Shown: positions 16,197 through 17,598 of the stretch, one piece after another
Layout: every line of letters starts with the position of its first letter
How positions within the stretch are numbered: position 1 is the stretch's first letter
Source of the DNA: Moniliophthora roreri
Lineage: Eukaryota > Basidiomycota > Agaricomycetes > Agaricales > Marasmiaceae
Assembly: GCA_001466705.2 (NCBI GenBank)
Contig: LATX02000200.1
Location: 186,001 to 250,000, forward strand
Length of the DNA: 64,000 nucleotides
Reading direction: 5' to 3'
Position numbers and translations under genes: made by a program
Notes under the pieces: model-generated
Database searches by the model: none
What the model was told of the DNA's origin: nothing
The model's input: only the letters and a program-made list of their open reading frames with translations

Positions 16197-17598
16197 ATGG
16201 CTTCCGAGATTGCAACTGCGACTGCTCTCTCTCACTCTACTGCTGCTGCCAACAAACAAGGCTCCTTGACCATAGCTGGTTCAGGAATAGCCAGCATCAG
16301 CCACATCACTCTCGAGACGCTCTCCTACATCAAGGAATCAGACAAGACCTTCTACCTCGTCTGCGACCCTCTCACTGAGGCATTCATCAAAGATAATAGC
16401 AGTGGCACGTGTGCCAACTTGTCCATTTACTACGACAAAGAAAAGGATCGTTATGACTCTTACATCCAGATGTGCGAGGAAAGTTTCCTTCCTACGTTCG
16501 CATCCGTACATTCCCAATGTGCTGACTTGTCGTTGACAGGTGATGTTGCAAGAAGTCCGAATGGGATACAATGTCTTGGGTGTCTTCTACGGCCACCCTG
16601 GCGTTTTCGTCAATCCTTCTCACAGAGCAATCGCTCTTGCGAGAGAAGAAGGCTTCAAAGCCAAGATGCTCGCTGGCGTGTCGGCCGAAGACTGCCTGTT
16701 CGCAGACCTCGAGTTTGATCCCGCAATTCTTGGTTGCATGACATGCGAAGCCAGCGAATGTCTCGCTCGGGACAGGCCATTCAATCCTTTCATCCACAAC
16801 ATCATCTGGCAGGTCGGAAGCATTGGTATAACCAACATGACCTTCAATGTAAGTTTATCGATAATCACTGAATTCATATAATTCATATAACTCACTTGTG
16901 TGATATTTTAGAACGACAAATTCTCTATTCTCGTCGACCGTCTGGAGAAAGACTTTGGACCCAACCACACAGTCGTGCACTATGTCGGTCGCGTCCTTCC
17001 ACAAGCAGTTTCGAAGATCGAGACCTTCACTGTTGGTGACCTTCGTAAGGTGGAAGTTCAGCGTCACTTTGACGCTGTCTCAACCCTCTACGTTCCCCCT
17101 CGCGACATGAGCCCCGTTGACCCAGGCATGGCCTCAAAGCTGGGGCCTGTCGGAGTCCGGACTGACGTAATTGAGGCGTTCCGCCCATCGCTGAAGTGGA
17201 GCGCACGGAACATTAACCACAAACTCTCCTATGCCTACAACCGCTATGAAAGCGATGTCGTTGAGAAATTGAAGGATCACGTGGTTCCCGAAGGACATCG
17301 GATTCTTCAGGGCTCGCCTGCGATGAAGACGTTCTTGACGGATTTGGCGCTGAAGCCTAGGCTCCTTGAAGAATACAGGGAGGACCCGGCAGCGGTGGTA
17401 GATCGAGTTGATGGCTTGACGGAGGATGAGAAGTACGGTTTGAAGTTGGGAACTGAAGGACCTGTATATGCTTTGATGTCGAAAACCACTGAAGATGTTT
17501 CGAGTGGTAAGCAGTTGTCAAGGAGCGACATTGCAGGTGGCAAACCCACGGCCTTCCTCAGCGCAGTTGTTATTGCTACCATTATCATTGCACTCTAG
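16197..17598 (+). CDS. Borosin precursor: self-acting peptide-backbone N-methyltransferase
   Basis: The gene encodes an OphMA-like fusion. A SAM-dependent tetrapyrrole-methylase-fold domain methylates backbone amides of its own C-terminal core peptide. Exons 16197-16478, 16540-16848 and 16912-17598 give about 425 residues (OphMA has 417). Visible family marks are GSLTIAGSGIASI near residue 22, the catalytic Tyr/Arg/Tyr set in IYYDKEKDRYDSY (Tyr79, Arg85, Tyr89), NVLGVFYGHPGVFVNPSHRA, and AGVSAEDCLFADLEFDP. The clasp-like helical region follows. The protein ends with a hydrophobic tail, TAFLSAVVIATIIIAL, the probable core, with no follower. Intron 1 starts GA instead of GT (gaaagt), so its splicing is uncertain. 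No prolyl oligopeptidase macrocyclase is in the window. Family assignment is by recognition of these motifs. Confidence 0.93.

What the first reader, a model, noticed from the sequence alone, without database searches (positions are those of the whole stretch)
16197..17598. A borosin RiPP precursor in a new genomic setting
The gene fuses an OphMA-type alpha-N-methyltransferase to a hydrophobic C-terminal tail. Catalytic Tyr/Arg/Tyr residues, the GVFYGHPGVFV block and the clasp are all visible. Borosins methylate their own peptide backbone, a rare chemistry, and each new core can mean a new N-methylated peptide. The core here differs from the omphalotin core as I remember it.
Basis: partly seen in the sequence, partly recalled or inferred. 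Interest (0 to 1): 0.93.

Follow-up and report, generated by a model that had tools for sequence, protein, structure and literature searches.

The report
Mushroom self-methylating peptide precursor gene
This is a gene of a known kind, a fungal enzyme that chemically modifies its own greasy tail to make a peptide, found in the cacao frosty pod rot fungus as one complete copy and two decayed copies, with an odd intron start that leaves open whether the complete copy is still used.

Summary
The core reading holds: window 16197-17598 encodes a fused fungal borosin precursor in three exons. Exons 2 and 3 match solved borosins MroMA1/2, dbOphM and OphA; equivalents of OphA Tyr66, Arg72, Tyr76, Tyr98, the clasp and a 15-residue hydrophobic C-terminus are present. 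(1) The intron 1 donor position reads GA, here and in the C104 copy and two C74 copies. (2) This is the only copy found with a start codon and SAM-binding loop; the C104 and C74 copies share a frameshift. (3) The tail is identical in M. perniciosa but differs at 8 of 13 residues in each duplicate. (4) No omphalotin-type partner was found: no P450 or prolyl oligopeptidase in 1-25 kb, no PF02897 match in the genome; these scans have limits. The closest relative outside the genus is in Gymnopilus. New member of a known kind; splicing, expression and methylation unshown.

The parts
16145..16154 (+). TATA-like stretch (TATAAAAAAA) about 43-52 nt before the ATG
   Evidence: Read directly from the sequence; its 3' part lies in the 16148-16401 segment missing from the duplicates. 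Promoter role is inference.
16197..16478 (+). Exon 1: N-terminus, SAM-binding glycine-rich loop, catalytic Tyr/Arg/Tyr
   Evidence: 94 aa; 61% identical to MroMA1 residues 4-83; aligned.
16479..16539 (+). Intron 1, 61 nt, GA...AG
   Evidence: Homology places the junction here; boundaries and alternatives; same GA in the C104 copy and two C74 copies.
16540..16848 (+). Exon 2: central methyltransferase domain with GVFYGHPGVFV
   Evidence: 1.4e-45 to MroMA1 7twk (query 16537-16854); dN/dS 0.13 and 0.10 against the C104 copy and the first C74 copy.
16849..16911 (+). Intron 2, 63 nt, GT...AG
16912..17550 (+). Exon 3, part 1: end of methyltransferase domain, clasp, leader up to ...GGKPT
   Evidence: 1e-40 to MroMA2 7twl; alignment.
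17551..17598 (+). Exon 3, part 2: predicted core, 15 hydrophobic residues AFLSAVVIATIIIAL, and stop
   Evidence: Identical 15 of 15 in M. perniciosa P0001; 8 of 13 compared residues differ in each duplicate. Core boundaries are inferred.
14350..15863 (+). Copia-type LTR remnant upstream (LTR stretches 14350-14570 and 15644-15863 around a gag fragment 14857-15351); context, not part of the gene
   Evidence: LTR end repeated across the genome
19416..20840 (-). Nearest downstream gene found: ubiquitin carboxyl-terminal hydrolase (PF01088; PF18031 just below its cut-off); context

Best explanation
A fused borosin (RiPP) precursor gene of Moniliophthora roreri, the only copy found in this genome that can still encode a whole protein. 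By analogy with OphA and MroMA, two chains would interlock through the clasp, each binding SAM with its N-terminal domain and methylating backbone amide nitrogens of the other chain's C-terminal tail (AFLSAVVIATIIIAL); a host peptidase other than an OphP-type prolyl oligopeptidase would then release the peptide. The mRNA would be made by removing a 61-nt intron with an unusual GA donor, or by a nearby in-frame alternative. Shown here: homology, exon layout, residues, duplicates, tail comparison. Inferred: splicing, dimer, methylation, release, bioactivity.
For: PDB matches to MroMA1/2, dbOphM and OphA for exons 2 and 3. Equivalents of OphA Tyr66, Arg72, Tyr76, Tyr98 and Asn106 present (OphA roles from passages of PMC6108569). 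All three exons found with MroMA1 as query. Clade with M. perniciosa and Gymnopilus at 100/100 among fungal borosins. No internal stop in 425 codons. M. perniciosa relative: 21 of 331 residues differ, 0 of 15 in the tail. Exon 2 dN/dS 0.13 and 0.10 against C104 and the first C74 copy: the methyltransferase part was mostly kept under constraint although all examined copies carry GA.
Against: Intron 1 has no GT donor. The duplicates have lost the intron 1 acceptor too (C104 reads CG there, C74 has a deletion). The gene is not among the 120 listed of 2615 protein hits while the decayed copies are (the database is clustered at 90%, so a member could hide behind P0001). The M. perniciosa model lacks exon 1 and has two extra residues at the junction. 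Exon 3 dN/dS is 0.62 and 0.39. Three window residues occur in none of the homologues filled at those sites (Met 0 of 85, Ser 0 of 81, His 0 of 78), against two for M. perniciosa. No expression or mass data.
Confidence: 0.72

Rival explanations
1. Recent pseudogene: the GA donor prevents splicing, so no whole protein is made; the reading frame looks intact only because too little time has passed.
For: GA in the four copies read; both other loci are decayed; gene not among the listed proteins.
Against: GA is shared by the duplicates, and exon 2 still shows dN/dS near 0.1 between them and the window; the M. perniciosa relative, which seems to share the same bases (its model reads Glu-Ser there; its DNA was not seen), has a 336-aa open model and the same tail.
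Confidence: 0.25
2. The gene is expressed through another in-frame intron, for example GT-AG 16483-16552 (70 nt) or 16506-16539 (34 nt), giving a protein with a small change at the junction.
For: Both keep the frame and the catalytic residues (which lists further pairs); the first has an ordinary length for this gene (other introns 61 and 63 nt).
Against: The first loses and the second interrupts the residues that the aligned full-length homologues have at the junction; 34 nt is very short; the acceptor of the 70-nt intron is not at the same place in the duplicates.
Confidence: 0.25
3. The hydrophobic tail is a membrane anchor of a methyltransferase that does not modify itself.
For: A hydrophobic C-terminal stretch of 15 residues with one Ser and one Thr.
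Against: A clasp and leader precede it as in borosins; 36 of the 92 top homologues (Moniliophthora copies and incomplete models included) end in a similarly hydrophobic stretch with no polar residue in the last five, with varying sequence; pocMA, named a borosin in UniProt, is among them.
Confidence: 0.05
4. Ordinary tetrapyrrole methylase (uroporphyrinogen or precorrin type), as the database names of the duplicates say.
For: NCBI names 'uroporphyrin-iii c tetrapyrrole methyltransferase'; weak PF00590 match.
Against: The best solved matches are borosins, and the clasp is present.
Confidence: 0.01

Closest known systems
MroMA1/MroMA2 (Mycena rosella, PDB 7twk, 7twl)
   Same: Homology over all three exons, catalytic residues, clasp, hydrophobic tail
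   Different: 48% identity over exons 2+3; different tail; separate clade
OphA/OphMA (Omphalotus olearius) and dbOphMA
   Same: Architecture and Tyr66/Arg72/Tyr76/Tyr98 equivalents
   Different: Tyr63 equivalent is Ser; no hydrophilic stretch after the core; no POP or P450 found nearby; OphMA lies in another clade
pocMA (named type I borosin in UniProt, P0020)
   Same: 51% identity; hydrophobic C-terminal tail without follower
   Different: Tail sequence
MPER_11585, M. perniciosa (P0001)
   Same: 94% identity, same 15-residue tail
   Different: Annotated without exon 1; two extra residues at the exon 1/2 junction
Gymnopilus junonius CPB84DRAFT_1778734 (P0003)
   Same: 74% identity; next to the Moniliophthora rows in the tree, support 100/100
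   Different: Tail differs (AFVSAVIIAAIICAL); model lacks exon 1

Membership tests
Fused fungal borosin precursor (type I-like) | Methyltransferase domain homologous to OphMA-type alpha-N-methyltransferases | tested here: met
Fused fungal borosin precursor (type I-like) | Active-site residues Tyr66, Arg72, Tyr76, Tyr98 of OphA | tested here: met
   alignment; numbering anchored on the Asp67-Ser71 loop given in PMC6108569. Tyr63 is not kept (Ser).
Fused fungal borosin precursor (type I-like) | Clasp / borosin-binding helical region in the same chain | tested here: met
   (exon 3 aligned to MroMA2 residues 186-397; a weak match of residues 137-180 to SonA, E about 0.1, is not significant by itself)
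Fused fungal borosin precursor (type I-like) | Core peptide at the C-terminus of the same chain | tested here: met
   boundaries inferred
Fused fungal borosin precursor (type I-like) | One continuous mRNA joining the three parts | tested here: inconclusive
   GA donor at intron 1
Fused fungal borosin precursor (type I-like) | Backbone N-methylation of the core | not testable with these tools
   needs protein and mass spectrometry
Omphalotin-type cluster | Prolyl oligopeptidase (OphP-like) next to the precursor | tested here: not met
   none in six frames of 1-25 kb (the same scan also failed to list the borosin's own weak PF00590 match, so short exons can be missed); PF02897 0 matches in the genome; 4 of 18 S9 places compared with the PDB fit aminopeptidase, acylaminoacyl or DPP4 enzymes best, with 7c72 'prolyl oligopeptidase' close behind in two
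Omphalotin-type cluster | P450 monooxygenases next to the precursor | tested here: not met
   none in 1-25 kb (same calls, same limit); nearest listed on this contig 147 kb away (only 92 of 720 candidates scored)
Tetrapyrrole methylase with a cofactor-biosynthesis role | Closest to UroM/precorrin methylases, no clasp | tested here: not met

The most novel reading that the evidence does not exclude
A borosin whose production passes through a non-canonical GA-AG intron shared by its duplicates and apparently by a second cacao pathogen, and whose peptide, lacking a follower and with no prolyl oligopeptidase found in the genome, is released by a different route from omphalotin, possibly as a linear N-methylated peptide.
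Probability: 0.2. Interest if true: 0.6.

Novelty: new member of a known kind. Interest (0 to 1): 0.36.

Why it matters
Borosins are the ribosomal route to backbone N-methylated peptides, which are stable and cell-permeable (PMC7878506, introduction). This adds a probable precursor in an economically important cacao pathogen that the listed protein records seem to miss, with a tail kept in its sister species and strongly changed in its duplicates. The shared GA donor makes a concrete, cheap test of non-canonical splicing possible from RNA reads, if such reads are public. No paper in the held library holds both Moniliophthora and borosin.

Tried and rejected
Ordinary tetrapyrrole methylase: rejected. 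A full borosin cluster: looked for by six-frame Pfam scans of 1-25 kb, 10 chosen ORFs beyond 25 kb and genome searches for P450 and S9 families; no partner found. Limits: 25-64 kb was not scanned in all frames; the scan did not list PF00590 in the frame that holds exon 2, a failed inner control for weak, split domains; PF02897 absence is weak evidence because no intron-rich fungal control was available; one search scored 92 of 720 candidates. The S9 follow-up compared 4 of 18 places with the PDB and 4 with NCBIfam, where every match lay below its curated cut-off. P450 matches near the decayed copies (C104:431531-431812, about 2.2 kb away; C74:89747-90916, about 9.4 kb away) were considered as cluster remains; the flanking DNA of C104 and C74 is partly shared, that of the window is not, so this was not pursued. 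Structure prediction was not run, because it would need the protein joined across the doubtful junction. Papers: PMC6108569, PMC8429565, PMC11395268, PMC9258550, PMC7072748 and PMC11590231 seen as passages; PMC7878506 as outline and introduction; others only as listings with the start of their abstracts. The 2019 survey of fungal borosins (DOI from memory) is not held, so whether it lists Moniliophthora is unknown. Searches for MroMA1 and for M. roreri with related words gave nothing of use.

Full report
Identity of the window. The window is G000:C100:186001-250000 of a 59.4 Mb assembly in 154 contigs. Two annotated Moniliophthora roreri proteins found by homology lie on contigs of 440155 and 934960 bases (P0002, P0004), exactly the lengths of C104 and C74 here, so the genome is taken to be M. 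roreri (Marasmiaceae, Agaricales), the cacao frosty pod rot fungus (recalled).

Anatomy. Exon 1 is 16197-16478, exon 2 16540-16848, exon 3 16912-17598 with the stop. The exons encode 94, 103 and 228 residues without internal stops. Intron 2 is 63 nt, GT-AG. Intron 1 is 61 nt and ends in AG but starts with GA. The position is fixed by homology: exon 1 ends ...QMCE and exon 2 starts VMLQEV, and the four aligned full-length relatives run QM(S/C)E followed by VML, VIL or LMV without a break. Not removing the intron shifts the frame. In-frame GT-AG alternatives that keep the catalytic residues exist, among them 16483-16552 and 16506-16539.

Borosin membership. Exon 2 matches MroMA1 at 1.4e-45, dbOphM at 8e-40 and OphA at about 1e-38; exon 3 matches MroMA2 at 1e-40, MroMA1 at 2e-40, dbOphM at 1.6e-28 and OphA at about 1e-25. 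Searching the genome with MroMA1 recovers all three exons, exon 1 at 61% identity. PF00590 is seen only weakly in exon 2 alone (22 bits against a cut-off of 27.8) and not in exons 1 and 3. Using the OphA roles given in PMC6108569 (passages), the equivalents of Tyr66, Arg72, Tyr76, Tyr98 and Asn106 are present; Tyr63 is replaced by Ser, and by Thr in MroMA1 and pocMA. In a tree of 43 rows the window groups with M. perniciosa and the C104 duplicate (100/99), then with Gymnopilus junonius (100/100), and not with borosins of Marasmius, Armillaria or Lentinula, which belong to the same suborder by general knowledge; OphMA, gymMA1 and their kin form another clade. Inside the group the window pairs with its duplicate rather than with M. 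perniciosa, at 98/76, so whether the duplication came before or after the split of the two species is not settled. The patchy distribution fits old duplication with losses, or transfer between lineages; I did not test which.

The tail. The protein ends in AFLSAVVIATIIIAL. M. perniciosa MPER_11585 has the same 15 residues while 21 of 331 residues differ over exons 2+3. The duplicates have AFVGLVVIIAVVV and AFVGLVVILAVVV: 8 of 13 residues and 15 of 39 bases differ from the window, against 11 of 102 bases in the stretch just before (Fisher p 4e-4 for each; the two comparisons are not independent). A conserved leader followed by a changed core is what RiPP precursors show; since the duplicates are decayed, part of the change may be neutral. 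Among the first 92 homologues, 44 end in at least 60% A/V/I/L/F/M/W/C over the last 13 residues, and 36 of the 92 also have no polar or charged residue in the last five (partial gene models and the Moniliophthora copies themselves were not removed). So a tail without follower is common here, unlike omphalotin.

Duplicates. The window shares 16014-16147 and 16402-17934 with C104:427724-429367 and, in parts, with C74 between 100356 and 102653 (minus strand), where parts occur twice around an assembly N; a further 5' piece lies at C74:95956-96221. In all four places the two shared parts abut and window 16148-16401, which holds the start codon and the SAM-binding loop, is missing. C104 and C74 share a 4-nt insertion in exon 3; C104 has a further 6-nt one, C74 deletions of 2 and 1 nt. 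Exon 2 dN/dS is 0.13 (window-C104, 8 synonymous and 4 non-synonymous changes) and 0.10 (window-C74 first copy, 10 and 4); exon 3 is 0.62 and 0.39; C104-C74 exon 3 has pN/pS 0.53. The counts are small.

The GA donor. It is the same in the window, in C104 and in the two longer C74 copies, so it is unlikely to be a local assembly error. The third C74 piece was not read at this site. In the duplicates the acceptor is lost as well: C104 reads CG there and C74 has a deletion. M. perniciosa's model reads Met-Cys-Glu-Glu-Ser-Val-Met-Leu: the extra Glu-Ser fits the same bases being taken as exon there, though I could not see its DNA. Since exon 2 shows constraint between copies that share GA, the ancestor with GA was probably functional; this is inference. 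GA-AG introns are rare but reported in another mushroom-forming fungus: 35 of about 92,000 splice sites (0.038%) in Ganoderma lingzhi (PMC11590231, passages); elsewhere they are noted mainly in two animals (PMC7072748, passages). The opposite reading, a dead gene, remains possible.

Setting. Upstream lies a copia-type LTR remnant (LTR stretches 14350-14570 and 15644-15863, 89-95% alike; gag 14857-15351), ending 333 nt before the ATG. Downstream on the other strand are a UCH-type deubiquitinase (about 19416-20840) and a questin-oxidase-like gene (about 23956-24995). Six-frame Pfam scans of 1-25 kb at E 0.01 gave nothing else, but they also did not list PF00590 in the frame of exon 2, so short or weak exons can be missed. 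In the genome, PF02897 gives 0 matches. PF00326 gives 18, none on this contig; the four compared with the PDB fit an aminopeptidase, acylaminoacyl peptidases or DPP4 best, with the chain named prolyl oligopeptidase (7c72) close behind in two of them. P450 matches exist (115 listed, 92 of 720 candidates scored) but none in the window. Hence no OphP-type cyclisation partner is visible; release of the peptide would need another peptidase, or a partner that these searches missed.

Verdict. A new member of a known kind, with an unsettled splicing question. No paper in the held library has both Moniliophthora and borosin, but the main 2019 survey is not held, so priority is not claimed.

Noticed in passing
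window 51703-57162: Similar minus-strand NAD(P)-binding reductase-like genes in a row (Pfam on one piece: NAD_binding_10/Epimerase; another piece gave no family), with ORFs nearly repeated at 51703, 53745 and 55835.
   Followed up: no
window 543-3443: ORFs that look to me like reverse transcriptase and tyrosine recombinase of a DIRS-like element (recalled likeness); Pfam found no family in 1-10 kb at 0.01.
   Followed up: partly
window 23956-24995: Questin-oxidase-like gene (PF14027), minus strand, about 6 kb downstream of the borosin.
   Followed up: no
L009 (C74:100356-102653): The C74 duplicate is partly repeated head to tail around a single N, possibly a misassembly.
   Followed up: partly
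C104:431531-431812 and C74:89747-90916: P450 matches lie a few kb from both decayed borosin loci, perhaps remains of an older cluster.
   Followed up: partly
P0001, P0003, P0007: Database models of close relatives start at the same Met of QMCE and lack exon 1; in P0007, on a 1121-base metagenome contig, the protein runs across the intron 1 site.
   Followed up: no
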